From: a virus
IMG/VR virus record: IMGVR_UViG_3300020463_000016
Location: 1-64,000 of that record
DNA length: 64,000 bases
Direction: 5' to 3' (one strand)
Within the stretch, counting starts at the first letter, position 1, and each line of letters begins with the position of its first letter. Positions 10,255 through 23,752 of this stretch are shown here, one piece after another. Below the pieces are notes generated by a model. It searched no databases and was not told the origin of the DNA. It worked only from the letters and a program-made list of their open reading frames with translations. The position numbers and the translations under genes were made by a program.

Positions 10255-10704
10255 TTATTTTTTTTGTTTGTTAAATTTTTTAATTGCTTGGCTATATACT
10301 TTGTCTATGTAACGTTCACGTTTCATTATTTTATTACGTTTAGTAGACTCAGGTAAGCTTTCTTCACCTATAAGTATCTTATATACTCTTGTTATAAGAT
10401 GCTTTCCTTTGTAGCTTATTTTATATTTATTATGATCTCCTATTCTGCCTTTGCCCATATGTACTTTTTCAATCCAGCCTTCTTTCTGCAATCTGTAAAA
10501 TCTTGTTTTATCCCAAGAATAATACAAAGTACCATCTTTAAAGTCTTGAATTGTAAAATACACTATTGGATCTAAGTAAAATAAAAGTTCTAAATCTGCT
10601 ACACCTAAATTATTATTTACACAAGCCCATCTAGAAACTAACCTATAATTTTTTAAAAAATCTACTTTTAACTCACCTCTTTCAATAAAATCGGATCTGT
10701 CCAT
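10255..10704 (-). CDS. Winged-helix (MarR-like) DNA-binding protein candidate (149 aa)
   Basis: Residues 35-105 have the pattern of a winged helix: 'VADLELLFYLDP', a helix 'TIQDFKD', then 'TRFYRLQKEGWIEKV' as a likely recognition helix, followed by a basic beta wing 'KYKISYKGKHLITRVY'. The C-terminal 35 residues are strongly basic. This layout is common in MarR-like proteins of Bacteroidota phages. Its ATG overlaps the stop of groES by one base, so it is translated with the chaperonins. It may regulate the late genes or be a virion DNA-binding protein; both are inference. Confidence 0.6.
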   Translation of the reverse strand: MDRSDFIERGELKVDFLKNYRLVSRWACVNNNLGVADLELLFYLDPIVYFTIQDFKDGTLYYSWDKTRFYRLQKEGWIEKVHMGKGRIGDHNKYKISYKGKHLITRVYKILIGEESLPESTKRNKIMKRERYIDKVYSQAIKKFNKQKK

Positions 10705-12563: not shown

Positions 12564-12866
12564 TTAACAATTCCACTTACGTCTTGCAGCTCTACCTCTT
12601 TCTGAGGTCCAGCTTTTAGACCTAGCGCAGAATGACTTTCTACGTTTTGCAGCCTTGCTTCCTCTTTTTAGTTTAGAAGGAGGAGTTGTAACCGCTGTCT
12701 TAAGTTTGCTACCAGGATTATCTCTACGATACTTAGCAACACCCTTACTAGTCATTCCGCCGCCGGCTTTCTTGCCTTTACCACCCTTTTTGTTTACTTT
12801 AGCGTAATATCCAAGCGACTTTTTTTTAGAAGGTGCAGGTGGCTTACGTCTTTTTTTAGGAGGCAT
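12564..12866 (-). CDS. Small basic DUF6321-like protein (100 aa)
   Basis: Very Lys/Arg-rich. The C-terminal half has the signature 'KTAVTTPPSKLKRGSKAAK', then 'RRKSFCARSKSW' and a terminal 'RRKWNC', with conserved Cys in the SFCAR and WNC positions. I recognise this as the DUF6321-type family of marine phages and giant viruses; that name is from memory, not a search. Function of the family is unknown. Location in a run of five similar small basic proteins suggests a virion or DNA-packaging role. Confidence 0.8.
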   Translation of the reverse strand: MPPKKRRKPPAPSKKKSLGYYAKVNKKGGKGKKAGGGMTSKGVAKYRRDNPGSKLKTAVTTPPSKLKRGSKAAKRRKSFCARSKSWTSERGRAARRKWNC

Positions 12867-12871
12867 TAATT

Positions 12872-13198
12872 TTAACCTAGTATATTTTTACCACTAGAAC
12901 GATTTGAACCAAGACCCATTTTTATACTTGAAGTCTTTTTACCTTTTGATTTTTCTTTTTGTTTTCTGTAGTATTCTAGTTTTTCTTCTGTAGTCATACC
13001 TTCAGTACCTAACTTTCTTTTTTTTCCTTCTTTTCCCTCGTGTCCCATATTTGCAGGAGAATGGCCCATATTAGTTGGAGCCGGTTTACCGTAGTTAGTA
13101 GGATGACCCATATTTAGCACTGCATCATCGTTTTTGAAGGTTCCTTCGGTGTCTACTTCTTTAGAACCGGGGTTCATTTTAAAAATTGGTGTGTTCAT
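12872..13198 (-). CDS. Small Gly/Asn/Met repeat protein (108 aa)
   Basis: Unrecognised. Residues 28-54 contain repeated 'NMGH' units (NMGHPTN, NMGHSPA, NMGHEG) separated by Pro-rich linkers; the C-terminal half is Lys-rich. It looks largely disordered. Sits among the small basic proteins. The His/Met-rich repeat could bind metal, but nothing beyond composition supports that. Confidence 0.65.
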   Translation of the reverse strand: MNTPIFKMNPGSKEVDTEGTFKNDDAVLNMGHPTNYGKPAPTNMGHSPANMGHEGKEGKKRKLGTEGMTTEEKLEYYRKQKEKSKGKKTSSIKMGLGSNRSSGKNILG

Positions 13199-13201
13199 AA
13201 T

Positions 13202-13453
13202 TTAATATTTACGTTTTGTTTTAGTTTCTTTTTTTGTTCCTAAACCGTCGTTTCCGCGATTCTTTTTTATTGTTTTAAATTTACTATCTTTGTGATCGTA
13301 ATCTTTACCGGCCAGAGATCTACCCGCCTTCTTAGCAGCTCTACGTTTCTTTTGGCTATCTGCTCTTTTTCTTTTACGAGCTGGTGAGTTTGCATAACGC
13401 AAATCTCGTTTAGCCTTAGCCGCTCGGGCTTTAAGGGTTAATTTCTGACTCAT
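13202..13453 (-). CDS. Small basic conserved phage protein (83 aa)
   Basis: About half Lys/Arg/Ala. It contains 'NSPARKRKRADSQKKRRAAK' followed by 'GKDYDHKDSKFKTIKKNRGN', a pattern seen in many marine phage genomes next to virion genes and ending in 'GTKKETKTKRKY'. The GKDYDH segment is the best conserved part. Function unknown; high positive charge suggests nucleic-acid contact. The ATG overlaps the stop of the 148-residue gene by one base. Confidence 0.75.
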   Translation of the reverse strand: MSQKLTLKARAAKAKRDLRYANSPARKRKRADSQKKRRAAKKAGRSLAGKDYDHKDSKFKTIKKNRGNDGLGTKKETKTKRKY

Positions 13454-13899
13454 TATTCACAATCACATTTATCTTTACCACAGCTGCATCCCTGCATCAT
13501 TGTTAAAGCTTTATTTCTGTCATCAAAATCAAGAGCAGCTTTAAGAACAATTTTGTCCATAATGTCGTCTTGGTTTTCTAACATTTCTTTTTGCAAGTTA
13601 ATTACCATGTCTTCCAGATCATCTTTACCCTGTGTTAACATATCTATCTTAAGTTGCTTCTTTTCTATTTCTGACTTGAGTGAGTTTACATCATCTGGTT
13701 TAGATCCAGTGATGGTACTTATTACAAGTCCTATTGATGCACTTATTGTGCCGATAAGCATCATTACTACTTCTTTATTTGTGTCTAGTACAGGAAACTG
13801 TATCAGTACAACTATAATTCCTATAATAAAAAGGAATATAAACAACGACCCGATGTAATGACGGATTTCTTTGGCTACGCCGTTTCTTGGAAGTTTCAT
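13453..13899 (-). CDS. Two-span membrane protein with coiled coil and Cys-rich tail (148 aa)
   Basis: Two hydrophobic helices (about 16-36 and 43-64) are followed by a heptad-rich segment (75-115) and a tail 'CSCGKDKCDCE' with five Cys. The layout (two TMs, long cytoplasmic or periplasmic coiled coil) is compatible with a holin- or spanin-like protein or a virion membrane anchor. The Cys-rich tail could bind a metal ion. Not recognised as a named family. Confidence 0.7.
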   Translation of the reverse strand: MKLPRNGVAKEIRHYIGSLFIFLFIIGIIVVLIQFPVLDTNKEVVMMLIGTISASIGLVISTITGSKPDDVNSLKSEIEKKQLKIDMLTQGKDDLEDMVINLQKEMLENQDDIMDKIVLKAALDFDDRNKALTMMQGCSCGKDKCDCE

Positions 13900-14204
13900 T
13901 TTCTCTTTTTTCTTTTGGTTGATTTTCTGCGTATCTGAGATGTCTTTCTACCCATGCCTACGCGCTTTTTCTCGGCTACTGCCCGTTTCTTTTCCGAGGG
14001 TGACATTTCACTCCAAGTCTTAACGGTTTTACCGGATACACGCCTTGAGGGCCTACACTTCTTAGTATTCTTATTTTTACGCGAACCGCATACATTACCT
14101 TTTTCGTCGGTCCACTTTTCTTTAAACCACCTTTTAAGTGCTAGCCCTTTCTTAGTTTTTCTTACTGCCACCTTTATGCACTTTTTGTATAGGAAAGCTT
14201 GCAT
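13896..14204 (-). CDS. Small basic DUF5872-like protein (102 aa; 91 aa from GTG)
   Basis: Core segment 'KTKKGLALKRWFKEKWTDEK' followed by 'NVCGSRKNKNTKKCRPSRRV' and 'KTWSEMSPSEKKRAVAEKK' resembles the DUF5872 type found in phages and giant viruses (recognised from memory). The ATG at 14204 overlaps the preceding 53-residue gene by 53 bases. Family members usually begin MAVRKTKKG-like, so a GTG at 14169-14171, giving 91 residues, may be the true start. Function unknown. Confidence 0.75.
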   Translation of the reverse strand: MQAFLYKKCIKVAVRKTKKGLALKRWFKEKWTDEKGNVCGSRKNKNTKKCRPSRRVSGKTVKTWSEMSPSEKKRAVAEKKRVGMGRKTSQIRRKSTKRKKRK

Positions 14205-14313
14205 ATATAGAAGCCCCGGGGTGCTTTACAAACTTACCTGAGTGCTTCATTAATTTATATTGTCTACCAGATTTCATCCAGTGGAATCCTGCAGGTGCTT
14301 TTACTCTTTTCAT
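14152..14313 (-). CDS. Small conserved phage protein 'HWMKSG..YKLMKH' (53 aa)
   Basis: ATG at 14311-14313 overlaps the previous stop as ATGA; TAA at 14152-14154. The sequence 'PAGFHWMKSGRQYKLMKHSG', then 'FVKHPGASIYASFPIQKVHK', is a small protein I recognise as recurrent in marine phage genomes near virion genes. Basic and aromatic; no known function. Its short length makes it easy to miss, but the overlap with both neighbours supports translation. Confidence 0.7.
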   Translation of the reverse strand: MKRVKAPAGFHWMKSGRQYKLMKHSGKFVKHPGASIYASFPIQKVHKGGSKKN

Positions 14314-14714
14314 CTTGGAGCACCGAACATATTAATAGCCCCACCTATTCTTGCACGTTTCAGTCTTCCTAACCTGCCTAAAAATCCGCCTCTCCTTCTA
14401 TTTTGACCCATTTGTGCTGCTGCAGTTTCTTGCGCGGCTGCTGCTGCGCCTTGCACTTCTCCACCACCACCACCAATATTGTGTGCTTCTAGTGTACTAG
14501 CAGCTTCTTGTATCTTACTTATATCATCTTGAAAGTACAAAGGTGTGCCTGAGTTTACTGCTGAATCAGCTTTTCCTTTTGGATCAATTTTTCTTTGAAC
14601 GCCTTCTGGTAATGATTCGAACCCTTCATTAAAATCTAATGGCGTGCCGCAAGGCTTACTATTAGGACTCGTTCCTGGAGCGCCTAAACTTTGTGGTCCT
14701 ATTCCGTTTTTCAT
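14310..14714 (-). CDS. Hypothetical protein, Gly/Ala-rich with basic C-terminus (134 aa)
   Basis: Unrecognised. The N-terminal half is polar with 'GIGPQSLGAPGTSPNSKPCG'; residues 80-97 are a Gly/Ala/Gln-rich linker; residues 103-124 are Arg-rich (RRRGGFLGRLGRLKRAR). A basic C-terminal segment after a flexible linker suggests a virion-internal or DNA-contacting protein. Context only. Confidence 0.65.
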   Translation of the reverse strand: MKNGIGPQSLGAPGTSPNSKPCGTPLDFNEGFESLPEGVQRKIDPKGKADSAVNSGTPLYFQDDISKIQEAASTLEAHNIGGGGGEVQGAAAAAQETAAAQMGQNRRRGGFLGRLGRLKRARIGGAINMFGAPR

Positions 14715-14730
14715 ATTTTCTTTTTTTATT

Positions 14731-15309
14731 TTAAGAGTATGCTGTTATTTTAATTACTGGAGGACTAACAAACTCTACTCCAGATCCGCCACCGCCAGCG
14801 TAATGATACACTCCATTCATATAATACCTATAATTTGAACTGCCATAGCCAGACATAAAAACTTTAAAAGCCCTAGCACTGGTCCACGAAGCAACCTGCC
14901 CGGTAGCAATACTATCTGTTCCGTCTATATTTATAACTGCCTGAGGAGACACATTCATTTCATATGTGTATTGCTGCAGCTGAGTTCTTTTTGTTTGAGT
15001 TATTAAAGTATTATCTAAAGCTACGTAATAAGAGGGTGAAATATGAGTGTCATTGGGATAATACCTTAATTGCACCGCAGCTTCATAATAAACTTTAGTT
15101 GTACCCGCGGGTGGAGTATAAGATACAGCACACCCGGTGTTTTCTACAAATGAACTTGAAGTAACCGCAGTAATATTTGTTATATTAGGAGCAGTAAAAT
15201 TACCCGCACTTGTAGTAACTGTTTTACCATCTGCGTAGTAAACGATCTGCTCTAGTATATTACCGAACGATGCATCTATTAAATTCTGCTTTACTTTAGT
15301 CCGGCTCAT
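14731..15309 (-). CDS. Beta-rich virion protein of the YTPP type (192 aa)
   Basis: Residues 60-85 hold 'VSYTPPAGTTKVYYEA', the hallmark shared with the partial protein at the left window edge. The C-terminal half contains 'SARAFKVFMSGYGSSNYRYY' and a Gly-rich turn before the final strands. Such proteins are frequent around tail genes of marine cyano- and pelagiphages. The ATG overlaps the stop of the 54-residue basic gene as ATGA. Likely a tail or head decoration protein. Confidence 0.75.
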   Translation of the reverse strand: MSRTKVKQNLIDASFGNILEQIVYYADGKTVTTSAGNFTAPNITNITAVTSSSFVENTGCAVSYTPPAGTTKVYYEAAVQLRYYPNDTHISPSYYVALDNTLITQTKRTQLQQYTYEMNVSPQAVINIDGTDSIATGQVASWTSARAFKVFMSGYGSSNYRYYMNGVYHYAGGGGSGVEFVSPPVIKITAYS

Positions 15310-15470
15310 TTTTTCTTACGTTTAGGTCCACCTCTTTTACGGCACTTAGCAATAGCACCCGAGGCATATGCCGATGGAAATACTCTATATCTAGACTTCA
15401 CGCTGTGGTAGCAGGCGTCTTTTTTTGACCCCGTCTTCTTTTTTGCTTTGCTTCTTCTTTTTACCGGCAT
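15306..15470 (-). CDS. Small basic 'DACYHSVKSRY' protein (54 aa)
   Basis: ATG at 15468-15470; TGA at 15306-15308, overlapping the next ATG. After a Lys-rich start (KRRSKAKKKTGSKK) comes 'DACYHSVKSRYRVFPSAYAS' and then 'GAIAKCRKRGGPK'. This D-CYHKVK-RY-V-PSAYASG-L-KCRK pattern is a well-known small protein motif in marine phages and some large DNA viruses, with two conserved Cys. Function unknown; one more of the basic cluster. Confidence 0.8.
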   Translation of the reverse strand: MPVKRRSKAKKKTGSKKDACYHSVKSRYRVFPSAYASGAIAKCRKRGGPKRKKK

Positions 15471-15950: not shown

Positions 15951-16195
15951 ATTACTACATTTTATCACATTATATACATATATCTCTTGGATTATACATA
16001 TATATAACAATAATATATATTAATATTTTATAGTATTTACTTTACATTATTATATATTCAATGTTTATTAATGTTTATTAATAATATAATGACAATACTT
16101 TATATTACTTAAGTTATATTTATATATATATATAATATAGTGCAATATTTATAATTTGTGACATTTTAATAATATTTATATATATTTAATAAAAA

Positions 16196-16231
16196 GTACA
16201 CAACAATATATATATAAAAGTGATAATATAA
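16196..16231 (+). promoter_or_regulatory. Putative phage promoter, copy 1
   Basis: GTACACAACAAT at 16196 and GTGATAATATAA at 16220-16231; the two boxes start 24 bases apart, as in all five copies. Lies 42 bases before the ATG of the first rightward gene. The downstream box resembles an extended -10 (TGATAATAT); the upstream box does not resemble a sigma-70 -35 or the Bacteroidota TTTG element. Confidence 0.7.
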
Positions 16232-16272
16232 GTGTAATTAAAATAATAATAATCTTAATAAAAAAATATAAA

Positions 16273-16500
16273 ATGTCAAATTTAAAAAATTTAAAAACTA
16301 ATCACTATATTTCTAAAATATTAAAAGTTAAAAAATTAAAATTTAAAAATAATATTTACTTTGGATTTTTAATAAATGACTTAAATAATATAAAATTAAA
16401 AGATAAATTAGAAATAGAAAATGTTATAGAATTTAATTCAAAAGGTTTAACATTTATAAATAAAAAATATATACAAAATTCTACTTTAAATAATTTTTAA
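16273..16500 (+). CDS. Small basic hypothetical protein (75 aa)
   Basis: First gene of the rightward unit, behind promoter copy 1. Very Lys/Asn/Ile/Leu-rich because the region is extremely AT-rich. Pattern 'LKNLKTNHYISKILKVKKLK' then alternating strand-like segments; resembles no family I know. Starts after an A-rich leader without a Shine-Dalgarno sequence. Early expressed takeover protein is possible but only by position. Confidence 0.6.
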   Translation: MSNLKNLKTNHYISKILKVKKLKFKNNIYFGFLINDLNNIKLKDKLEIENVIEFNSKGLTFINKKYIQNSTLNNF

Positions 16501-16514
16501 AATAATATAAAAAA

Positions 16515-16550
16515 GTACACTACAAAGTTTATAAAAAAGTGATAATATAA
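16515..16550 (+). promoter_or_regulatory. Putative phage promoter, copy 2
   Basis: GTACACTACAAA at 16515 and GTGATAATATAA at 16539-16550, same 24-base offset as the other copies. The next ATG is at 16568, so the leader would be only about ten bases. Confidence 0.7.
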
Positions 16551-16567
16551 ATGTAAATAAAATAAAT

Positions 16568-16732
16568 ATGAAATATATAACTTATAAAATTAATAATGAT
16601 TTCTTTGAATTAGATTATAATAATTATAAAGAAGAAGAAAAAGAAATGTTAAAATATATTAAAAATAATAATATAAAAGATTTTAAAAAATTAGAAAATA
16701 ATAAAGATTATAAATATAATATATTTAAATAA
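16568..16732 (+). CDS. Small hypothetical protein (54 aa)
   Basis: ATG at 16568-16570, TAA at 16730-16732. Starts MKYITYKINNDFFELDYNN and continues with a mixed Lys/Glu/Asn helix. Placed directly behind promoter copy 2 with an A-rich leader (AAATAAAATAAAT). Not recognised. Confidence 0.55.
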   Translation: MKYITYKINNDFFELDYNNYKEEEKEMLKYIKNNNIKDFKKLENNKDYKYNIFK

Positions 16733-16853
16733 AAAATAATAATATAAAGTAGAGGATTTGAATAAACAATTTTCTGTAACTACTATAAAAACTGTTGAAT
16801 TAAATTAAATTAATTTTAAAATAAATAAAATAAAAATAAAATAAAATAAAAAA

Positions 16854-17051
16854 ATGATACAAAATAATTTTTCAGTACAAATTTACGACGGAGAAAGTGA
16901 TAATAAATTAGATATATTATATATAAATAATATTATAAATTTAGATGATAATGACAATGATTTTACTAGAAAATTTGAAGAAGAATTATTAGATGAAGAA
17001 TTAAAATTTGAAGGATATAATATAAGTGAAATATATTATTCAATACTATAA
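16854..17051 (+). CDS. Small acidic hypothetical protein (65 aa)
   Basis: Strongly acidic (residues 14-57 rich in Asp and Glu, for example 'LDDNDNDFTRKFEEELLDEE'). The 120 bases before it are non-coding and AT-rich. Acidic small early phage proteins often act as DNA mimics or inhibitors of host proteins; here that is only a possibility from charge and position. Confidence 0.55.
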   Translation: MIQNNFSVQIYDGESDNKLDILYINNIINLDDNDNDFTRKFEEELLDEELKFEGYNISEIYYSIL

Positions 17052-17069
17052 TAAATAAAAATAAAAAAT

Positions 17070-17282
17070 ATGAAAAGATTCCATTGGAATGTAGAAACTT
17101 TAGATTTTTTTCAACTATTAAAAAATAGTGAAGGAAATGAAAAAATGAAACAAAGTGTAGAAATGTTTGTTTATAATGAATGTGATTTAGAAAATAATGA
17201 AAGTTATGAAGATTTAATTAAAGATTTATTATATCAAATTGAAAATACAACTTTAGAAGAAATAGAAAATTTAAAAAAATAA
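17070..17282 (+). CDS. Small acidic hypothetical protein (70 aa)
   Basis: Begins MKRFHWNVETLDFFQLLKN and is helical and acidic toward the C-terminus. A-rich leader, no Shine-Dalgarno. Unrecognised; part of the promoter-proximal early cluster. Confidence 0.55.
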   Translation: MKRFHWNVETLDFFQLLKNSEGNEKMKQSVEMFVYNECDLENNESYEDLIKDLLYQIENTTLEEIENLKK

Positions 17283-17285
17283 AAT

Positions 17286-17423
17286 ATGAATAATGAAATG
17301 TTAAAAAGAATTTATGATGAATTAATAATTTTACATGATTTCTATAATGATTTAAATGATAAAGATGGATTAAGAAATGTAAGTTTCTTATTAGATGAAT
17401 TAAATAAAAATATAAAAGAATAA
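17286..17423 (+). CDS. Small hypothetical protein (45 aa)
   Basis: ATG at 17286-17288, TAA at 17421-17423. Sequence starts MNNEMLKRIYDELIILHDFY and looks like a single helical hairpin. Three bases after the previous stop and four before the next start, so it fits the operon spacing. Unrecognised. Confidence 0.5.
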   Translation: MNNEMLKRIYDELIILHDFYNDLNDKDGLRNVSFLLDELNKNIKE

Positions 17424-17427
17424 AAAT

Positions 17428-17754
17428 ATGACACAAGAACAAATTGATAGAAATGAATTAATAAAATTTATTTTAAAATATGATCCAGAAAGAGATTTAG
17501 AATTTTTAAAAATCCAATCTCATATGGAATTAGAAGATATAAAAGAAACAACAAGAGATATGTATCTAAAAATTAAACCAAAAGTAAAAAGTGTTGATGA
17601 CTTTGATTTAGATACTTATATTGATTTCAATAAAATAGTTGATGATTTTGAATTAGATAGTGGTGATTTATCTCCAGAAGATTTTTATAAATTACATGAA
17701 ATCTTTGAAACATTTATAACAACAAATAAAAATGAAAATCAATTTAGAAGATAA
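17428..17754 (+). CDS. Acidic helical hypothetical protein (108 aa)
   Basis: Asp/Glu-rich throughout, with 'PKVKSVDDFDLDTYIDFNKI' and 'DDFELDSGDLSPEDFYKLHE' forming two related acidic segments. No enzyme motif. Fits the same early-cluster pattern as its neighbours. Confidence 0.6.
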   Translation: MTQEQIDRNELIKFILKYDPERDLEFLKIQSHMELEDIKETTRDMYLKIKPKVKSVDDFDLDTYIDFNKIVDDFELDSGDLSPEDFYKLHEIFETFITTNKNENQFRR

Positions 17755-17780
17755 TAAATAATATATAAAAAATAAATAAT

Positions 17781-17921
17781 ATGATTATAATAAATAAAAT
17801 AACAGGTAGAGATGTTTCCAAAGAGTATTTAGGATTAATGCAAGGAATAATAACAAATGAAGAATTTGAAACAATTACATTAACTCCGGGAAAAATTGGA
17901 AGTTGTGAATTATTTAATTAA
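17781..17921 (+). CDS. Small hypothetical protein (46 aa)
   Basis: ATG at 17781-17783, TAA at 17919-17921. Starts MIIINKITGRDVSKEYLG; ends GKIGSCELFN. The stop lies just before promoter copy 3. Unrecognised. Confidence 0.5.
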   Translation: MIIINKITGRDVSKEYLGLMQGIITNEEFETITLTPGKIGSCELFN

Positions 17922-17923
17922 AA

Positions 17924-17959
17924 GTACACAACAAAAAAAATTAATAAGTGATAATATAA
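17924..17959 (+). promoter_or_regulatory. Putative phage promoter, copy 3
   Basis: GTACACAACAAA at 17924 and GTGATAATATAA at 17948-17959, again 24 bases apart. The next ATG is at 17970, leaving a leader of only a few bases if the right-hand box is a -10 element. Base composition of the genes becomes noticeably less AT-extreme downstream of here. Confidence 0.7.
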
Positions 17960-17969
17960 TAAAATAAAT

Positions 17970-18161
17970 ATGGTACAATTAACAAAACAAATGATTGATG
18001 ATAAATTAAAGCAAATTGCTATACATGAAAACCGATTTGGTGAATGTACAATGACTCGAGCAATGAAAAAATATTGCACAAATGAAAAGTACAGACAAAA
18101 TGTAAAAGATTTTAACAAAGCAAGTATTGAAACTATTAAAAATTATATAAGATATGTATAG
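17970..18161 (+). CDS. Small basic hypothetical protein (63 aa)
   Basis: Behind promoter copy 3. Starts MVQLTKQMIDDKLKQIAIHE; contains 'GECTMTRAMKKYC' with two Cys. Overlaps the next gene by eight bases. Unrecognised. Confidence 0.55.
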   Translation: MVQLTKQMIDDKLKQIAIHENRFGECTMTRAMKKYCTNEKYRQNVKDFNKASIETIKNYIRYV

Positions 18162-18471
18162 AGATGATTTAGTATATGAGTTTAACGATGATATGTGGAG
18201 TTTATATCATGATGGTACAATTAATGATAGCGATGATTTCACAAGAGAAACGCATCAGTGGTTAGAAAATAAAGTAATATACAGAGATGATTGTAAAAAA
18301 TATTGTAATGAATTAGATGCAGATATATTTGAAGATCATCATATATTTGGTCGTGCAAATAACTGGTTTGAAGCAGGTTACAACGCTGTTTGGGATTTGT
18401 TACATGATCATGATGATGCATTAAATTATAACGAAATGAAAGCACAAGAATATGAAGCTGAAAATGCATAA
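18154..18471 (+). CDS. Acidic hypothetical protein (105 aa)
   Basis: Asp/Glu/His/Tyr/Trp-rich ('WSLYHDGTINDSDDFTRETH', 'DHHIFGRANNWFEAGYNAVW'). No motif I can assign. The next small gene starts inside its last codons (ATG at 18464), consistent with translational coupling. Confidence 0.6.
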   Translation: MYRDDLVYEFNDDMWSLYHDGTINDSDDFTRETHQWLENKVIYRDDCKKYCNELDADIFEDHHIFGRANNWFEAGYNAVWDLLHDHDDALNYNEMKAQEYEAENA

Positions 18472-18574
18472 AGTTTGGAGATTATACTTATTAGATAATA
18501 AAAGTATAACTGAAATAAGTAAAGAATTAAATATAACAAAAAATAAATTAAAATTAAAATACGGATTAAAATGA
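18464..18574 (+). CDS. Small HTH-like protein (36 aa)
   Basis: ATG at 18464-18466, TGA at 18572-18574. 'VWRLYLLDNKSITEISKELN' followed by 'ITKNKLKLKYG' fits a minimal helix-turn-helix (as in region 4 of sigma factors or resolvase tails). At 36 residues it would be the DNA-binding unit alone. Overlaps both neighbours, so translation is plausible. Confidence 0.5.
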   Translation: MHKVWRLYLLDNKSITEISKELNITKNKLKLKYGLK

Positions 18575-18699
18575 GAAAATTAGAAATGACTATTAGAATT
18601 GTTGCATTAACTTTTATATTGCCCAGTATATTTATTATTATGTACCACGGTGTATATCTAAATAAATTTACATTATATAATGTAGGAGGTGCAATATGA
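18571..18699 (+). CDS. Small single-span membrane protein (42 aa)
   Basis: ATG overlaps the previous stop as ATGA; the stop overlaps the next ATG the same way. A hydrophobic helix (about residues 7-27) with a basic N-terminus. Unrecognised small inner-membrane peptide; early membrane peptides in phages can exclude competitors or modify the host envelope, but that is speculation here. Confidence 0.5.
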   Translation: MRKLEMTIRIVALTFILPSIFIIMYHGVYLNKFTLYNVGGAI

Positions 18700-18893
18700 A
18701 TTTAAAAAGAATTAAAGAATTAAGAAATATTACGCATGATGCACAAACTAAAATGGATCTTATTAGCAAAAGAATTATGCAAGGTGGTTTATCACTCGAT
18801 CAACAAATACTACACCTTGATAATTTTACTGCAAATCAAACCAGACATATGCTTAGTAATGAAGAACTAATTAAATTATTAAAAAATGAATAA
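18696..18893 (+). CDS. Small helical hypothetical protein (65 aa)
   Basis: Basic N-terminus 'MNLKRIKELRNITHDAQTKM' and helical throughout. This start is preceded by AGGAGGTGCAATATG-like sequence ('GGAGGT' at 18684-18689), one of the few Shine-Dalgarno-like sites in the window. Unrecognised. Confidence 0.55.
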   Translation: MNLKRIKELRNITHDAQTKMDLISKRIMQGGLSLDQQILHLDNFTANQTRHMLSNEELIKLLKNE

Positions 18894-19068
18894 ACAAGAA
18901 GCAATACAAAATTTAGCTGATGAAATTGCACCGGTTATTAGTGAACAAATCCAAGAAACAATTGCATGGCAAACAGATGGCCATGAATATACTGAACATT
19001 TATCAGGCGATAGATATATAGAATTTGTAAATGAATTAAGAAATAAAATAATACAAGATTTATTATGA
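18886..19068 (+). CDS. Small acidic helical protein (60 aa)
   Basis: Starts MNKQEAIQNLADEIAPVISE; a mostly alpha-helical, acidic protein with 'EHLSGDRYIEFVNELRNKI'. Overlaps the previous gene by eight bases. Unrecognised. Confidence 0.55.
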   Translation: MNKQEAIQNLADEIAPVISEQIQETIAWQTDGHEYTEHLSGDRYIEFVNELRNKIIQDLL

Positions 19069-19169
19069 AAAGTACACAACAAAATAATTTAGCAAGTGAT
19101 AATATAAGTGAAGAAATTAATGAAATGTTTCTTGAATTACAAATAAATAAAACAGATTATAATGAATAA
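19065..19169 (+). CDS. Small ORF containing promoter copy 4 (34 aa)
   Basis: ATG at 19065-19067 overlaps the previous stop as ATGA; TAA at 19167-19169 overlaps the next gene. The reading frame begins MKSTQQNNLASDNISEE and its first 15 codons are the promoter motif itself. It may be translated, or it may be an accidental frame over a promoter. I keep it with low confidence. Confidence 0.35.
   Translation: MKSTQQNNLASDNISEEINEMFLELQINKTDYNE
19072..19107 (+). promoter_or_regulatory. Putative phage promoter, copy 4
   Basis: GTACACAACAAA at 19072 and GTGATAATATAA at 19096-19107, with the constant 24-base offset. Sits just after the stop of the 60-residue gene and would serve the genes from 19162 onward. 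Confidence 0.65.
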
Positions 19170-19395
19170 ACAAAACACAAAACTAGAAAACTATCTAGAA
19201 TTAAAACAAAAGTATGACAGAATGCAAAACTTAGTTGATAGCTGGGCCTTTGATTACTCGATTGAAAAGCTAAAGCCTTTGCTTGATGATGGCTTTGAAG
19301 GTAATGATTTAATTGAATATTTTACTATTAGATTAATTGATTACATTGAAAACAAATATGAACCAACAAAACCAACTGAAGATGGCGGGAAATAA
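19162..19395 (+). CDS. Helical hypothetical protein (77 aa)
   Basis: Starts MNKQNTKLENYLELKQKYDR; amphipathic helices, Trp and Asp in the middle ('LVDSWAFDYSIEKLKPLLDD'). First gene with an unambiguous start after promoter copy 4. Unrecognised. Confidence 0.6.
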   Translation: MNKQNTKLENYLELKQKYDRMQNLVDSWAFDYSIEKLKPLLDDGFEGNDLIEYFTIRLIDYIENKYEPTKPTEDGGK

Positions 19396-19528
19396 ATTTA
19401 ACACAGAATTTGCTATACACAGACCAGATCGTTACAGAATACAATTTCAAGATCAAGATGGTGTTGTGCAAAGTATGAACGGCACACCAATGCAAGTATT
19501 AAATTATATACTAAACCAACAATTATGA
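19382..19528 (+). CDS. Small hypothetical protein (48 aa)
   Basis: The ATG at 19382 (MAGNKFNTEFAIHRPDRYRI) overlaps the preceding stop region and gives a compact, beta-like protein; a longer in-frame start at 19337 would overlap the previous gene much more and is less likely. Segment 'DRYRIQFQDQDGVVQSMNG' suggests a small strand-turn-strand fold. Unrecognised. Confidence 0.55.
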   Translation: MAGNKFNTEFAIHRPDRYRIQFQDQDGVVQSMNGTPMQVLNYILNQQL

Positions 19529-19716
19529 AATATTGTAGATGTGGCGAAATAATGCCACAAGCAAGAATTGATCTTGGCTATAATAAATGTGTGCAATGCT
19601 CTGATACACAATTATATAGTTATGTACCAATCATTGCAAACAAACAAGTACTCGAAGTACAAATCGTTGATCAAGCTACAAGTGCGAATGTGCACAGAGC
19701 TTGGCGACGTAAATAG
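19525..19716 (+). CDS. Small zinc-ribbon-like protein (63 aa)
   Basis: Cys4, Cys6, Cys22 and Cys25 form a CxC...CxxC pattern (YCRCGEIMPQARIDLGYNKC then VQC). Order and spacing recall the C-terminal zinc finger of DksA/TraR proteins, which contact RNA polymerase, but the first pair is CxC not CxxC and the coiled coil is absent, so the assignment is weak. ATG overlaps the previous stop as ATGA; its stop touches the tRNA-like element. Confidence 0.6.
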   Translation: MKYCRCGEIMPQARIDLGYNKCVQCSDTQLYSYVPIIANKQVLEVQIVDQATSANVHRAWRRK

Positions 19717-19795
19717 GGCGTGACGGGTAAGTGCAAACAAAGTTCTAGAATTAGTACACTATTTGCAAACGGAGGTTCGACTCCTCCCACGTCCA
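19716..19795 (+). tRNA. tRNA-like sequence, acceptor and T arms only
   Basis: The ends GGGCGTG (19716-19722) and CACGTCC (19788-19794) pair over seven bases, and GGAGG-TTCGACT-CCTCC (19771-19787) is a perfect T arm. The 48 bases between (usually 40-44) do not give a normal D arm or anticodon arm, and the conserved U8 is missing. The best internal pairing is TGCAAA with TTTGCA. TTGCAAA, the usual tRNA-Cys(GCA) anticodon loop, abuts the T arm. No CCA is encoded. Either a decayed tRNA or an unusual tRNA-like RNA. Confidence 0.4.
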
Positions 19796-19797
19796 CT

Positions 19798-19870
19798 AGC
19801 GCGGTAGAGCAGTGGCCAGCTCGCAGGGCTCATAACCCTGAGGTCGGAGGTTCGAATCCTTCCCGCGCAA
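19798..19870 (+). tRNA. Initiator-type tRNA-Met (CAT)
   Basis: Full cloverleaf: acceptor AGCGCGG/CCGCGCA with an A1-A72 mismatch, D stem GAGC/GCTC with the A11-U24 pair, anticodon arm CAGGG-CTCATAA-CCCTG with anticodon CAT, T arm GGAGG-TTCGAAT-CCTTC (one G-T pair), discriminator A. The unpaired 1-72 position and three consecutive G-C pairs next to the anticodon loop are the classical marks of bacterial initiator tRNA. CCA is not encoded (CTA follows). Confidence 0.93.
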
Positions 19871-19883
19871 CTAAATTAAAATT

Positions 19884-20153
19884 ATGACTAAAGAACAAAT
19901 TGACTTAAGAATTGAATCAAAGCTGATTGGCAAAATGGCTAATCACAGATTAATGGTACGTGATCTATTTAGAAAACGACATAGAGGTGCATTTCCAGAA
20001 TTAAATTCTCACCAATGCATGTACCATGTAAACGAATTACGTGCATGGCTTAGAATAGCACAACTTATTGATGAAGCTAAATATAGAATGCCAAGTTGTC
20101 CAGCTGAACCTTATGAAACTCATTATGCAAAACAATTAACTAAAAATAAATAA
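19884..20153 (+). CDS. Basic helical hypothetical protein (89 aa)
   Basis: First gene after the tRNA. Arg/His/Met-rich: 'MVRDLFRKRHRGAFPELNSH' and 'HVNELRAWLRIAQLIDEAKY'. Could be a small nucleic-acid-binding protein by charge. No family recognised. Confidence 0.6.
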   Translation: MTKEQIDLRIESKLIGKMANHRLMVRDLFRKRHRGAFPELNSHQCMYHVNELRAWLRIAQLIDEAKYRMPSCPAEPYETHYAKQLTKNK

Positions 20154-20155
20154 AT

Positions 20156-20479
20156 ATGACTGCAATTGAAAAATTACAACAAAAATTAGACATTGAAATT
20201 ATGGATTTCAATTCAAATCATACACACTATGATTTAGAAATTAGTACACGTATGACGGCTGACGGCTACGATGTATACGTTATGACAAATAGCTCATTTG
20301 AAAATCAAATTGATTGGGAAAATGATGTTTACTATTATCAACCATCATTTGATGACATTATGTCACGTATAATGGAATTAGACCCCGGTGATAAAGTGTA
20401 TACAGATGATCTAGAAGAGTACTTCCCTGATTATGAAATTGAACAATGGATTAATGATAACGAAGACGCTGATGACTAG
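20156..20479 (+). CDS. Acidic hypothetical protein (107 aa)
   Basis: Predicted alpha/beta with a very acidic C-terminal half (DLEEYFPDYEIEQWINDNED). Contains 'YDLEISTRMTADGYDVYVMT', a likely beta hairpin. Net charge strongly negative. Unrecognised. Confidence 0.6.
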   Translation: MTAIEKLQQKLDIEIMDFNSNHTHYDLEISTRMTADGYDVYVMTNSSFENQIDWENDVYYYQPSFDDIMSRIMELDPGDKVYTDDLEEYFPDYEIEQWINDNEDADD

Positions 20480-20741
20480 TGAACAATTAGAAGAGCTTGC
20501 GCGACTTATTGCAACTAAAGTAATAAATGCATTGAGAGAACCATTACCAGATCCTACATTTCATACAGAAATTGATCAATTTGGTAATATAAAATACTTT
20601 GATCGCAAAGAAATAATTGAATTACAATTAAAACAATTAAGTGAACAACGTGAAAAATTATTAAATGAAGAAAAATATGAATTATTAATTGAACTTGAAG
20701 AAATATATGACAAACTTAAAAAAGAATATGACAACCTTTAA
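20472..20741 (+). CDS. Helical hypothetical protein (89 aa)
   Basis: The ATG at 20472 (MTSEQLEELARLIATKVINA) overlaps the previous stop; an in-frame start at 20433 would overlap further. The C-terminal 45 residues are a Lys/Glu-rich coiled coil. Ends inside the ligase start. Unrecognised. Confidence 0.6.
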   Translation: MTSEQLEELARLIATKVINALREPLPDPTFHTEIDQFGNIKYFDRKEIIELQLKQLSEQREKLLNEEKYELLIELEEIYDKLKKEYDNL

Positions 20742-21564
20742 ACCTATGCTGGCACACCCAGTATCAAAACAAATTAATTGGAAAAATGAAACACACTTTA
20801 TTCAACCAAAGCTTGATGGCGTGCGATGTGTTATTACAAGATACGGAGCTTATAGCAGAAACAACAAGCAGTTCCACAATTGTAAGCATATACTCACTGA
20901 GCTTAAACCACTCTTTGCCGATAATCCTTATCTTATTCTTGACGGCGAGCTTTATAATCATAAGTTCAAAAACAATTTTAATAAAATAATTTCTCTTGTG
21001 CGTAAACAAAAACCTACACAACAAGATAAATTTGAAGCAGCAAGTTATCTGCAATTCCATTGCTACGATTTATTTTCTGGTCATCTAAAGTTTATTGATC
21101 GTACACTTGCTATTACAAATCTTAAAAGCAAATACGGCCTTAAGTTTACTCATAGTGTCAATACTAAAGTAGTATTTAATGATAAACAACTAAACAAATA
21201 CCACAAACAAAACAAAGCGAACGGCTACGAAGGCTCAATGCTTAGAACAAACAGCTTATATGAACAAAAACGAAGTTACACATTGCAAAAAATTAAAGAC
21301 TGGTCGGACACCGAGATCACAATCACTAATTATATTGAAGGCAAAGGCAAATTCAAAAATGGCCTTGGCAAATTTATCGGTGTTGATTCAGACGATAGGC
21401 TAGTTGAAGTACCTTGGCCATCACTTACAATACTTGATCGTCAAGGTATATGGCACAACAGAGCAGCCTATATTGGCAAACAACTAACCTTTGAGTATTT
21501 TGAGCGCACACCATCGGGTGCATATCGTTTTCCTCGAGCTAAAGCAATGCGCAGTTATGAGTAA
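20728..21564 (+). CDS. ATP-dependent DNA ligase (278 aa)
   Basis: Seals nicks during phage replication. From the ATG at 20728: motif I 'QPKLDGVR' with the adenylated Lys28; motif III 'LDGELY' (71-76) with Glu74; motif IV 'YEGSMLR' (167-173) with Glu168; motif V 'LQKIKDW' (186-192) with Lys188 and Lys190. A C-terminal OB domain follows ('EGKGKFKNGLGKFIGV'). An in-frame ATG at 20689 would add 13 residues but lies within the preceding gene. Length matches compact T7-type ligases lacking extra DNA-binding domains. Confidence 0.95.
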   Translation: MTTFKPMLAHPVSKQINWKNETHFIQPKLDGVRCVITRYGAYSRNNKQFHNCKHILTELKPLFADNPYLILDGELYNHKFKNNFNKIISLVRKQKPTQQDKFEAASYLQFHCYDLFSGHLKFIDRTLAITNLKSKYGLKFTHSVNTKVVFNDKQLNKYHKQNKANGYEGSMLRTNSLYEQKRSYTLQKIKDWSDTEITITNYIEGKGKFKNGLGKFIGVDSDDRLVEVPWPSLTILDRQGIWHNRAAYIGKQLTFEYFERTPSGAYRFPRAKAMRSYE

Positions 21565-21643
21565 ACTTATTTGGGAATTATATAACACAAATCAAATTAG
21601 CGAAGAAGTCGCACATACATTATTAGATAAACTATATGAATAA
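21557..21643 (+). CDS. Very small hypothetical protein (28 aa)
   Basis: ATG at 21557-21559 inside the ligase end, TAA at 21641-21643. MSKLIWELYNTNQISEEVAH then LLDKLYE: one amphipathic helix pair. Overlaps both neighbours in the ATG/stop style of this operon, the only support for it. Confidence 0.4.
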   Translation: MSKLIWELYNTNQISEEVAHTLLDKLYE

Positions 21644-21806
21644 AGCAATTAGATTAACAAATGCGGACGGCAAAACAACAAAATTCAAACCATATCAAAT
21701 AGGTAATTTACCTAAAAGCTTTGATAAAAATAAAGATAAATATTTTAATAAAGCTGGTATTACTTATATTGAAGAAAAAGAGGCCCATTGGTCTAGCTTC
21801 TTATGA
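21636..21806 (+). CDS. Small hypothetical protein (56 aa)
   Basis: ATG at 21636-21638 overlaps the preceding stop; TGA at 21804-21806 overlaps the next ATG. Starts MNKAIRLTNADGKTTKFKPY; basic. Unrecognised. Confidence 0.5.
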   Translation: MNKAIRLTNADGKTTKFKPYQIGNLPKSFDKNKDKYFNKAGITYIEEKEAHWSSFL

Positions 21807-22012
21807 AAATAAAAATTGGTAATAAAACTATTTTATGTACTAGAAAAAAAGATCATAAAGATTTTTTGTTTGAAAGAATTATGCAGTTAAGAAATGAAAT
21901 TATTCAAGAAGTTTTATTATCTTCGCAGAGTGGTAGAATACCTGTTAAAATTTTAAAGCATAAAGCAAATATGATTAGAAAGTATAGTAGAAGATTAAAA
22001 ATATTAGCATGA
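21803..22012 (+). CDS. Small basic hypothetical protein (69 aa)
   Basis: Starts MKIKIGNKTILCTRKKDHKD; helical C-terminus rich in Lys/Arg ('HKANMIRKYSRRLKILA'). Overlaps the previous and next genes as ATGA. Unrecognised; charge suggests nucleic-acid contact. Confidence 0.55.
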   Translation: MKIKIGNKTILCTRKKDHKDFLFERIMQLRNEIIQEVLLSSQSGRIPVKILKHKANMIRKYSRRLKILA

Positions 22013-22170
22013 GTAAACTTGGAAAACTTATTATTGACTGCCCAAAGTATGGCCACGACGAGTATTTAATCAATACCGAAGTTGCTATACATGTACAAGA
22101 AGCAGACGTCACACGCATTTTAAAATACTTTTCTGACGAGGCAATAATCGATTTTAAAAAAGTATGCTAA
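22009..22170 (+). CDS. Small hypothetical protein (53 aa)
   Basis: ATG at 22009-22011, TAA at 22168-22170. MSKLGKLIIDCPKYGHDEYL; alpha/beta composition. Overlaps neighbours. Its first residues resemble those of the 28-residue gene, probably by chance. Unrecognised. Confidence 0.5.
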   Translation: MSKLGKLIIDCPKYGHDEYLINTEVAIHVQEADVTRILKYFSDEAIIDFKKVC

Positions 22171-22340
22171 AAAAAAATATAATTAAATGCAGCCAATGCA
22201 ACCAAGAATTTCCTGGCGGGTTTGAATATAGACAACACTGGGAAGAAAAACATTTTTACCCGTATTTAAAAAAAAATTCATTTAACTATGAACAAGCAAA
22301 AAAAGACTTTGATAAGCAAAATTTGGAGAATATGGGCTAA
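22164..22340 (+). CDS. Small C2H2 zinc-finger protein (58 aa)
   Basis: Cys9, Cys12, His25 and His30 form C-x2-C-x12-H-x4-H ('KCSQCNQEFPGGFEYRQHWE' then EKH), with the usual Phe and aromatic core positions, so a classical C2H2 finger is likely. C2H2 fingers are rare in bacteria but occur in phages and Ros-type regulators. Basic flanks suggest DNA or RNA binding. Translationally coupled to neighbours by overlap. Confidence 0.7.
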   Translation: MLKKNIIKCSQCNQEFPGGFEYRQHWEEKHFYPYLKKNSFNYEQAKKDFDKQNLENMG

Positions 22341-22464
22341 AGCATTAGGTGAAAAAGCCGCAGAAAATGCAGACACTGTAGCATTTGTGAGAACGTTATT
22401 AATAGCGCAGGCTGTTATAACAAATATATTAATATCAATTAACATTTTAATTAACTGGTTATGA
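22288..22464 (+). CDS. Small membrane protein (58 aa)
   Basis: ATG at 22288-22290, TGA at 22462-22464. Basic N-terminal 20 residues, then a hydrophobic stretch from about residue 36 to 58 ('LLIAQAVITNILISINILIN'). A single-span inner-membrane peptide with N-terminus inside. Overlaps the zinc-finger gene by 53 bases. Unrecognised. Confidence 0.5.
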   Translation: MNKQKKTLISKIWRIWAKALGEKAAENADTVAFVRTLLIAQAVITNILISINILINWL

Positions 22465-22559
22465 GCGCAATAAAACAATACAGACATTTGTTAAAAACAA
22501 ATATTTTTAATGTCCGTGATAAAATTAAAGCAGAAAGAAAAATTAAAAAGAAAAGATGA
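22461..22559 (+). CDS. Very small basic protein (32 aa)
   Basis: ATG at 22461-22463 overlapping the previous stop, TGA at 22557-22559 overlapping the sigma-factor ATG. Half Lys/Arg at the C-terminus. May exist mainly to couple translation into the sigma-factor gene. Confidence 0.4.
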   Translation: MSAIKQYRHLLKTNIFNVRDKIKAERKIKKKR

Positions 22560-23332
22560 AAAACTTTAATAAGAAAATATTTTCATTAAATATATCTTCT
22601 TTACAAAAAGTTAATTCAACTATACCGCAAAAATATTTTAATTTAGCTATCAATATAGCCAACAGCTTTTCAAAAGAATACTCTTCAATTGGTGTTATGA
22701 ATACTAATGATTTAATACAAGAAGCTTGTTTTGCTTTAGTTAAATCTTGGAAAAACATTAATTGGAAATATATAGATAGTATAGAAGATAAGTTAGATCG
22801 TAAAAAATCAGTAACTAACTTTTTGAAAAAAAGTATTAATGGTTTAGTTAAAGATGAAATTAAAAAGAATATGGACGGTACTAAAAAACCTATTAAAGGA
22901 ATATGGGATAATAAAACTAAAACTCGCAGAACTGATGTGTTTGGCTTTTTATCTATATTGTTCCCAAATTGGTTTGACAACAACGTATTAACTTTAATAG
23001 AAGATGAAGTTTATGATTATGACTATGAGCAGCTAAGTAAATACTTAGAAACTTGGCTAGATAAGCATGAACCTAAATACAAAGAAATGATCTTAATGTT
23101 ATATGGTATAGATGATGTTTATTCTAAACCTAAAACAATTTCAGAAATAGCTATTAAGTTTATGATGAAACCAGAAGCAGTACGAAAACAAAAAGAAAGA
23201 TTAATTAAGCGGATTAAAGCTAATGATCAAGCTCTCAGTGAGTTATCGTATTTCGTAGTGACGCACGGTATTAAATCGTCATCGCTGGTTTATGATTACG
23301 CAGCAAATAATTTAAAAATTTACGCAGATTAA
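22556..23332 (+). CDS. Sigma-70-family RNA polymerase sigma factor (258 aa)
   Basis: Redirects host RNA polymerase to phage promoters. Region 2 spans about residues 30-105: 'MNTNDLIQEACFALVKSWKN' matches the DLIQEG-GL--A---F core helix that binds the polymerase clamp, followed by 'FLKKSINGLVKDEIKK'. A variable linker follows, then region 4 at about 170-225: 'YKEMILMLYGID', 'TISEIAIKFMMKPEAVRKQK', a helix-turn-helix for -35 contact. The size suits a two-domain (regions 2 and 4) factor like phage or group 3-4 sigmas. It lies in the same unit as the repeated GTACAC/GTGATAATATAA motif, a natural candidate target (inference). Confidence 0.85.
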   Translation: MKNFNKKIFSLNISSLQKVNSTIPQKYFNLAINIANSFSKEYSSIGVMNTNDLIQEACFALVKSWKNINWKYIDSIEDKLDRKKSVTNFLKKSINGLVKDEIKKNMDGTKKPIKGIWDNKTKTRRTDVFGFLSILFPNWFDNNVLTLIEDEVYDYDYEQLSKYLETWLDKHEPKYKEMILMLYGIDDVYSKPKTISEIAIKFMMKPEAVRKQKERLIKRIKANDQALSELSYFVVTHGIKSSSLVYDYAANNLKIYAD

Positions 23333-23340
23333 AGTCACTT

Positions 23341-23369
23341 TTGACTAAAATTGCACTATATTATATATA
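23341..23369 (+). promoter_or_regulatory. Possible sigma-70-like promoter
   Basis: TTGACT at 23341-23346 and TATATA at 23364-23369 with a 17-base spacer, just after the sigma-factor stop. The start point would fall at or just past the ATG at 23374, giving a leaderless transcript or serving a downstream gene. AT-richness makes a chance match possible. Confidence 0.3.
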
Positions 23370-23373
23370 CCTT

Positions 23374-23715
23374 ATGGATACATTTAAAAGTAAACTTAAA
23401 CTAGTAAATGATAATGTTGACACATTATCCTATATAAAACACTCTAATGATTCTATTAATATAAGTGCCGATCTTAAAATGAAAGAAGGCAATTACAATA
23501 TTAATAATAACAAGGCTGTATCTTCTTCTAAAGAAATTAATTTATCTTTTAACAGATTAACTGGAGCAGGCGTCAATACTCGTAATAATATATTAAATGA
23601 GTATAACAACATTGAAAAATTAGAAGACGTTAATTCAGGCTTTGCTAAATTAGAAAGCTGTTACAAAAGAAGAGTCTTTAAAAAAAATGGTATAATTTAT
23701 GATTTACTTAATTAA
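23374..23715 (+). CDS. Hypothetical protein (113 aa)
   Basis: Asn/Lys/Ser-rich, with 'FNRLTGAGVNTRNNILNEYN' in the middle and a Cys-Tyr-Lys-Arg-Arg segment near the end. I use the ATG at 23374 rather than the TTG at 23341, because 23341-23369 resembles a sigma-70 promoter. No family recognised. Directly after the sigma factor. Confidence 0.6.
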   Translation: MDTFKSKLKLVNDNVDTLSYIKHSNDSINISADLKMKEGNYNINNNKAVSSSKEINLSFNRLTGAGVNTRNNILNEYNNIEKLEDVNSGFAKLESCYKRRVFKKNGIIYDLLN

Positions 23716-23716
23716 A

Positions 23717-23752
23717 GTACACAACAAAATATGAAAGCACGTGATTATATAG
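23717..23752 (+). promoter_or_regulatory. Putative phage promoter, copy 5 (variant)
   Basis: GTACACAACAAA at 23717 and GTGATTATATAG at 23741-23752; the left box is identical to copies 3 and 4, the right box differs at two of twelve bases, and the 24-base offset is preserved. It would drive the recombination genes beginning at 23840. Confidence 0.6.

What the first reader, a model, noticed from the sequence alone, without database searches (positions are those of the whole stretch)
16196..23752. A five-copy bipartite promoter family specific to this phage
GTACAC(A/T)ACAA followed by GTGATAATATAA (GTGATTATATAG in copy 5) occurs at 16196, 17924, 19072, 23717 (ACACAACAA) and 16515 (ACACTACAA). 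The start-to-start distance is exactly 24 bases every time, and I found it nowhere else on either strand. The right box looks like an extended -10. The left box is neither a sigma-70 -35 nor the Bacteroidota TTTG element. Three copies are intergenic, just upstream of genes; in two (16515, 17924) the next ATG is only about 10-18 bases after the right box, implying nearly leaderless messages.
Basis: seen in the sequence. Interest (0 to 1): 0.75.

Follow-up and report, generated by a model that had tools for sequence, protein, structure and literature searches.

The report
Shared two-box promoters of marine phages
The five matching DNA signals are real and are almost certainly start signals (promoters) for the phage's right-arm genes; dozens of related, uncultivated marine phages carry the same signal, and one of its two halves has changed at every copy together in some of them, which points to an unidentified partner protein that reads it.

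Summary
"Specific to this phage" is wrong. The same two-box element (here "class I") occurs in dozens of IMG/VR contigs, always on the early-gene strand. In 75 of 75 TACGTNACA/GTGATNATATA pairs the gap is exactly 14, although 4-31 was allowed. The spacer is not conserved. The right box is constant; the left box is ACAC in four contigs and ACGT in twenty, and no contig mixes these. One orthologous copy keeps 92% identical flank but a swapped left box. These features fit promoters: an extended -10 (TGnTAATAT) plus an upstream box whose last six bases lie 17 bp from it. They do not fit the Bacteroidota sigma-A consensus, an RNA structure, a protein repeat or a phage RNA polymerase (none found). 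A phage sigma factor lies within the class I operon of every contig long enough to show it. A second promoter-like element, class II, flanks the sigma gene and faces the late arm; it differs between sigma families whereas class I does not. New variant of a known kind.

The parts
16196..16231 (+). class I copy 1: GTACACAACAA-N13-GTGATAATATAA; -10 TAATAT 16224-16229; upstream of the first right-arm gene (ATG 16273)
   Evidence: orthologous copy in G001, G002, G003, G029, G034
16515..16550 (+). class I copy 2 (ACACTACAA variant); ATG of 54-aa gene at 16568
17924..17959 (+). class I copy 3; ATG at 17970; the copy whose G052 ortholog has 92/100 identical upstream flank but a swapped left box
19072..19107 (+). 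class I copy 4, lying inside a conserved small ORF (MKSTQQNNLASDNISEEINEMF...; frame starts about 19066)
23717..23752 (+). class I copy 5 (GTGATTATATAG); ATG of a small conserved ORF (23731) lies in the spacer; precedes the recombination/replication genes
22556..23332 (+). phage sigma-70-family factor (sigma2 + sigma4), 258 aa
   Evidence: PHROG sigma 7e-10; profile of 19 homologs hits PDB sigma factors to 1e-14; Pfam Sigma70_r2 only below its cut-off
16134..16162 (-). class II element 1: GTCAC-N12-TTGCACTATATT, facing the left (late) arm, back to back with class I copy 1
23334..23362 (+). class II element 2: GTCAC-N12-TTGCACTATATT, directly after the sigma stop codon, upstream of ATG 23374

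Best explanation
The five sites are promoters of the rightward arm (small early genes, the sigma gene, then the recombination/replication genes). The conserved right box GTGATAATATAA is an extended -10 element (TGnTAATAT). The left box occupies the -40 to -30 region. Because the genome and its relatives encode no detectable RNA polymerase, host core polymerase most likely does the transcription, redirected by a specificity factor that is probably phage-supplied. That factor reads the left box and has changed specificity once in the window's clade (ACGTTACAA versus ACACAACAA), dragging all copies with it. The phage sigma factor is expressed from within this operon. It more likely reads the separate class II elements that face the late arm and flank the sigma gene, giving a class I -> sigma -> class II cascade. 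Shown: the element, its geometry, conservation, orientation, in-place left-box swap, co-occurrence with sigma, and the class II elements. Inferred: promoter activity, start sites, which factor reads which class, and timing.
For: Exact recurrence against 0 expected. Gap fixed at 14 in 75/75 pairs when 4-31 was allowed. 80 unique sites in 24 contigs, boxes about 1.7 bits per column versus spacer 0.4-0.6. In the fetched contigs all sites lie on one strand. Sites sit just upstream of genes: median 25 nt from -10 end to ATG, 75 of 79 within 150 nt. Right box constant; ACAC or ACGT left core never mixed within any of 18 multi-copy contigs. Copy 3 versus its G052 ortholog: upstream 92/100, spacer 12/13, right box 11/12, left box only 7/11. 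In copy 4 the amino acids follow the DNA box (KSTQQ -> KNTLQ), so the DNA is the conserved thing. Divergent beta phages: 77 sites TACA-N4-9-A(C/T)ACG-N6-9-TGATAAT, all on the sigma strand. Sigma gene in all 14 fetched class I contigs that extend far enough; sigma-less ones end within 2 kb of the last copy. No hit to the phi14:2 virion RNAP. Class II differs between the alpha and gamma sigma families at both conserved positions.
Against: No transcript data. Copies 4 and 5 have their -10 inside short reading frames, unusual for a promoter. Alpha and gamma phages have very different sigmas (25-28% identity) but the same class I boxes, so the class I reader is not identified; a host-encoded factor is not excluded. 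The ACAC/ACGT switch may be a single evolutionary event. Beta phages have a differently arranged left part.
Confidence: 0.68

Rival explanations
1. The phage sigma factor itself reads class I (sigma4 on the left box, sigma2 on the extended -10), with positive feedback on its own operon; class II is read by something else.
For: Sigma accompanies class I in every sufficiently long contig; the last 6 bases of the left box lie at the canonical 17-bp distance from the -10; sigma4.2 recognition helices differ between the ACAC (xPEAV) and ACGT (mostly xxENV) alpha clades.
Against: Gamma phages have 25-28% identical sigmas with a different recognition helix but identical class I boxes, while class II differs with the sigma family. 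Copies 1-4 precede the sigma gene, so a first supply of sigma would need another promoter, and no sigma-A-type promoters are enriched.
Confidence: 0.3
2. Class I sites are strong early promoters read by the unmodified host holoenzyme, primary sigma or a host alternative sigma.
For: They head the first right-arm genes; an A-rich stretch precedes the left box (UP-element-like); the left-box end plus -10 resemble TTGACA-N17-TATAAT loosely (TTACAA-N17-TAATAT in ACGT phages).
Against: The likely host is Bacteroidota: nearest named relatives infect Flavobacterium and Cellulophaga and only 2 of 37 genes have a Shine-Dalgarno. There sigma-A reads TAnnTTTG (PMC9723704), absent here. A scan of 84,980 bacterial and archaeal species found 3 single hits, two of them apparently phage contigs binned into a MAG, so no host regulon is seen. 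A host factor would not readily explain a genome-wide left-box switch.
Confidence: 0.17
3. A phage-encoded (virion) RNA polymerase reads class I, as proposed for early genes of crAss-like phages phi14:2 and crAss001.
For: The window phage has a crAss-like muzzle protein and an early arm; phi14:2 early genes are transcribed by a virion RNAP (PMC8375218).
Against: phi14:2 RNAP has no homolog in 5,344 open frames from the 16 contigs then in hand (window phage and relatives); the giant 2,665-aa protein lacks a conserved DxDxD or any RNAP hit; two boxes with a variable 13-bp spacer suit a sigma/activator system.
Confidence: 0.07
4. A repeated RNA or translation element, or a protein-coding repeat.
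For: Two copies overlap short conserved ORFs (SDNISEEI..MF and MKARDYIDE..).
Against: No RNA fold beyond shuffles (z +0.7 to +1.7) and no Rfam match at the sites; the ACAC to ACGT change breaks the only possible CAC/GTG pairing without compensation; other copies are intergenic with no shared frame; in copy 4 the residues change with the DNA box.
Confidence: 0.04
5. Binding sites of a phage repressor or replication protein rather than promoters.
For: Spacing and sequence are very tight; a MarR-fold phage protein (10255-10704) is conserved.
Against: No dyad symmetry; always the same orientation relative to genes; TAATAT with TG ahead; the MarR-like protein also exists in Elemovirus and MW202828, which lack class I.
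Confidence: 0.06

Closest known systems
Phage sigma-factor cascades (Bacillus SPO1 gp28/gp33-34, from general knowledge; Staphylococcus phage K, PMC11598898)
   Same: phage sigma encoded among early/middle genes; distinct promoter classes; host core polymerase presumably used
   Different: here sigma appears tied to class II, not to the five reported sites; no experiment; Bacteroidota-type host
T4 MotA/AsiA middle promoters (summarised in PMC11598898)
   Same: constant -10 with TG plus a phage-specific upstream box replacing the -35
   Different: left box covers -40 to -30 in alpha/gamma phages; no MotA or AsiA homolog identified; activator unknown
crAss-like phage early transcription by virion RNAP (phi14:2, crAss001; PMC8375218)
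   Same: distantly related virion proteins; early arm divergent from the late arm
   Different: no RNAP gene detected; a sigma factor is present instead
Bacteroidota sigma-A promoters (TTG / TAnnTTTG; PMC9723704)
   Same: probable host group
   Different: no TTTG at -7; such sites are not above chance in these phages

Membership tests
sigma-70-type extended -10 promoter | -10 hexamer with TGn before it | tested here: met
   TGATAATAT in 4 of 5 window copies (copy 5 TGATTATAT); near-invariant in 80 unique sites
sigma-70-type extended -10 promoter | upstream box about 17 bp before the -10 | tested here: met
   left-box last hexamer (CAACAA/TTACAA) to TAATAT spacer 17, fixed in 75/75
sigma-70-type extended -10 promoter | transcription starts 5-9 nt after the -10 | not testable with these tools
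   no RNA data
Bacteroidota sigma-A promoter | TAnnTTTG at -7 with TTG at -33 | tested here: not met
   absent from the class I consensus; such sites at chance level in 9 genomes; consensus from PMC9723704
crAss-like virion-RNAP transcription system | giant two-barrel RNAP gene | tested here: not met
   no phi14:2 gp77 homolog, no conserved DxDxD in the giant protein
Crassvirales (taxon) | crAss-type muzzle protein | tested here: met
   Pfam crAss_MUZ 8e-11 and crAss_MUZ_C
Crassvirales (taxon) | virion RNAP and close TerL | tested here: not met
   no RNAP homolog; nearest named TerLs are MW202828 61% and Elemovirus 44%, with Cellulophaga and Tenacibaculum phages 30-37%
phage sigma-dependent promoter cascade | phage-encoded sigma factor | tested here: met
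   all top PDB profile hits are sigma-70 family
phage sigma-dependent promoter cascade | class I sequence tracks the sigma family | tested here: inconclusive
   class I same in alpha-ACGT and gamma, different in alpha-ACAC and beta; class II differs by sigma family
MotA-type activated promoter | phage activator binding the upstream box | not testable with these tools
   only a MarR-fold candidate without specificity for class I phages

The most novel reading that the evidence does not exclude
Class I is read through an undescribed phage-supplied specificity factor, neither the phage sigma nor an RNA polymerase, that replaces -35 recognition on the host enzyme of marine Bacteroidota and whose specificity switched genome-wide in the window's clade, upstream of a separate sigma that reads class II.
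Probability: 0.27. Interest if true: 0.72.

Novelty: new variant of a known kind. Interest (0 to 1): 0.52.

Why it matters
Transcription control of the crAss-like/Elemovirus-related phages of marine Bacteroidota is hardly known outside the virion-RNAP members. Here comparative genomics alone gives a promoter family with fixed geometry, a second class linked to a phage sigma, and natural left-box swaps that make the cis/trans pairing directly testable. The motif also flags early operons of many uncultivated phages in metagenomes.

Tried and rejected
Virion RNAP (phi14:2 gp77 blastp/phmmer, PDB and Pfam searches of the 2,665-aa protein): no support. Host regulon: none in a scan of 84,980 species. 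Host sigma-A sites: at chance. RNA structure and Rfam: nothing at the sites. Dyad search in Elemovirus NC_055852, phi18:3, Calle and Gundel: no comparable family. Repeated dyads in phi14:2 turned out to be scattered within coding sequence. AlphaFold of the sigma was weak (pLDDT 65), so identity rests on sequence profiles. MarR-fold protein as reader of class I: present also in phages without class I. Drobysheva 2021 could not be read (not held). Literature searches returned no description of this motif in the held library.
Full report
OBSERVATION. All five copies are present exactly as reported, with 24-base start-to-start spacing and no further match on either strand at up to 3 mismatches; 100 shuffles gave none. 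The window is 64.0 kb of a 68,037-bp IMG/VR record and the rest adds no copy. Copies 1-3 are intergenic; copies 4 and 5 overlap starts of short conserved reading frames.

WHAT THE GENOME IS. Terminase, portal, major capsid and muzzle proteins identify a podovirus distantly related to crAss-like phages (Pfam crAss_MUZ). The nearest named relatives by terminase are an unclassified podovirus MW202828 (61%) and Flavobacterium Elemovirus (44%), then Cellulophaga and Tenacibaculum phages (30-37%). Only 2 of 37 gene starts have a Shine-Dalgarno, in keeping with a Bacteroidota host. The right arm (16.3-34.6 kb, +) starts with small genes, then a sigma factor, Erf/exonuclease, primase-helicase, thymidylate synthase and ribonucleotide reductase. 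The left arm (-) carries basic small proteins, GroEL and the virion genes.

IT IS A FAMILY, NOT PHAGE-SPECIFIC. The exact motif was found in three other contigs with 3, 3 and 6 copies and different spacers. A weight-matrix scan then showed that more distant relatives keep the right box and the spacing but have another left box: ATACGTTACAA in G029/G009/G030/G031, GTACGT(T/C)ACAA in G033/G034. An exact search for the ACGT form hit 33 stretches of IMG/VR. In the retrieved sequences all 75 TACGTNACA...GTGATNATATA pairs (N = A or T) have a gap of exactly 14, although 4-31 was allowed (a few overlapping loci are counted twice). Over 80 unique sites from 24 contigs the boxes carry about 1.7 bits per column and the spacer 0.4-0.6. 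All sites of a contig lie on one strand. Third-tier relatives (beta, for example G013) have many copies of a related element, TACA(A/G)-N4-A(A/G)(C/T)ACGA-N7-TGATAATATAAnTGTAAC: 77 on the sigma strand and none on the other.

GENOME-WIDE LEFT-BOX SWITCH. Among 18 contigs with more than one copy none mixes ACAC and ACGT cores; the one mixed contig in the count differs by ACGC. This may be one event in phylogenetic terms. The in-place comparison is more telling: copy 3 of the window and its ortholog in G052 have 92 of 100 identical upstream bases, 12/13 in the spacer, 11/12 in the right box, but 7/11 in the left box. In copy 4, which lies in a reading frame, the residues change with the DNA box (KSTQQ to KNTLQ) while the following SDNISEEI is kept. 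So the left box is under its own selection and follows a trans-acting factor.

WHY A PROMOTER. TGnTAATAT has the form of an extended -10, and the last six bases of the left box lie 17 bp upstream of it. Starts of open frames follow at a median of 25 nt after the -10 (75 of 79 sites within 150 nt). There is no RNA structure, no Rfam family at the sites and no dyad symmetry. It does not match the Bacteroidota sigma-A consensus TAnnTTTG (PMC9723704), and such sites are at chance level in nine of these genomes. A scan of 84,980 bacterial and archaeal species shows no host regulon (two of the three hits look like phage contigs binned into a MAG). No phage RNA polymerase was found, so host core polymerase is the likely enzyme.

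THE SIGMA FACTOR AND CLASS II. The 258-aa protein 22556-23332 is a sigma-70-family factor: the profile of 19 homologs matches solved sigma factors to 1e-14 over regions 2 and 4; the AlphaFold model alone is weak. A sigma homolog of one of three families (alpha, beta, gamma) is in every fetched class I contig that extends far enough; contigs without it end within 2 kb of the last copy. Elemovirus and MW202828 have neither sigma nor class I. A second element was found by footprinting. In alpha phages GTC(C/A)C-N12-TTGCACTATA(A/T)T occurs at two places: back to back with class I copy 1, facing the late arm, and within 5 nt after the sigma stop codon, facing right. Gamma phages have a different element at the same two places, (G/T)TATAC(C/T)TTTT...TTTATGTAATATATATTATA (shown upstream for three gamma genomes and after sigma for four); its 23-base start-to-start distance was counted by hand from that output. 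Class II thus differs with the sigma family, whereas class I is identical in alpha-ACGT and gamma phages whose sigmas are only 25-28% identical (identities are to the window's sigma). The simplest reading is class I -> sigma -> class II (late arm). The alternative, sigma reading class I, keeps some support from co-occurrence and from a recognition-helix difference between ACAC and ACGT alpha sigmas.

LIMITS. Timing words (early, late) are inferred from gene content and position.

VERDICT.

Noticed in passing
window 19716-19794 (+): tRNA-like structure beside tRNA-Met, not called by ARAGORN or Rfam: acceptor stem and T arm but no D arm, and a 6-bp middle stem (TGCAAA/TTTGCA) with a large loop; relatives have TGCTGA/TCAGCA, a compensatory change.
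   Followed up: partly
MW202828.1 43.7-55.2 kb (loci L116/L117): A perfect 16-bp palindrome GTGTCGTTAACGACAC occurs about 14 times in the early arm, several just upstream of genes: an unrelated, operator-like family in the nearest named relative.
   Followed up: no
window 16134-16162 (-) and 23334-23362 (+): Class II promoter-like element, exactly two per complete alpha phage, tied in position and sequence to the sigma gene family.
   Followed up: yes
window 10255-10704 (-): 149-aa protein conserved in all relatives including Elemovirus, predicted MarR-like winged-helix fold (pLDDT 85; best PDB matches MarR, E about 3e-3).
   Followed up: partly
window 12564-15470 (-): Several tiny Lys/Arg-rich proteins at the start of the left arm, many well conserved across relatives; probably DNA-condensing virion proteins.
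   Followed up: no
window 16.2-24 kb versus G052 50.6-59.5 kb: Early module mostly 74-90% identical in DNA to that of a gamma-sigma phage although the sigmas share only 28%: sign of module exchange between sigma families.
   Followed up: partly
window 16029-16063 (+): Another block, TATAGTATTTACTTT...ATATATTCAATG, conserved upstream of copy 1 in six relatives, single copy, function unknown.
   Followed up: no
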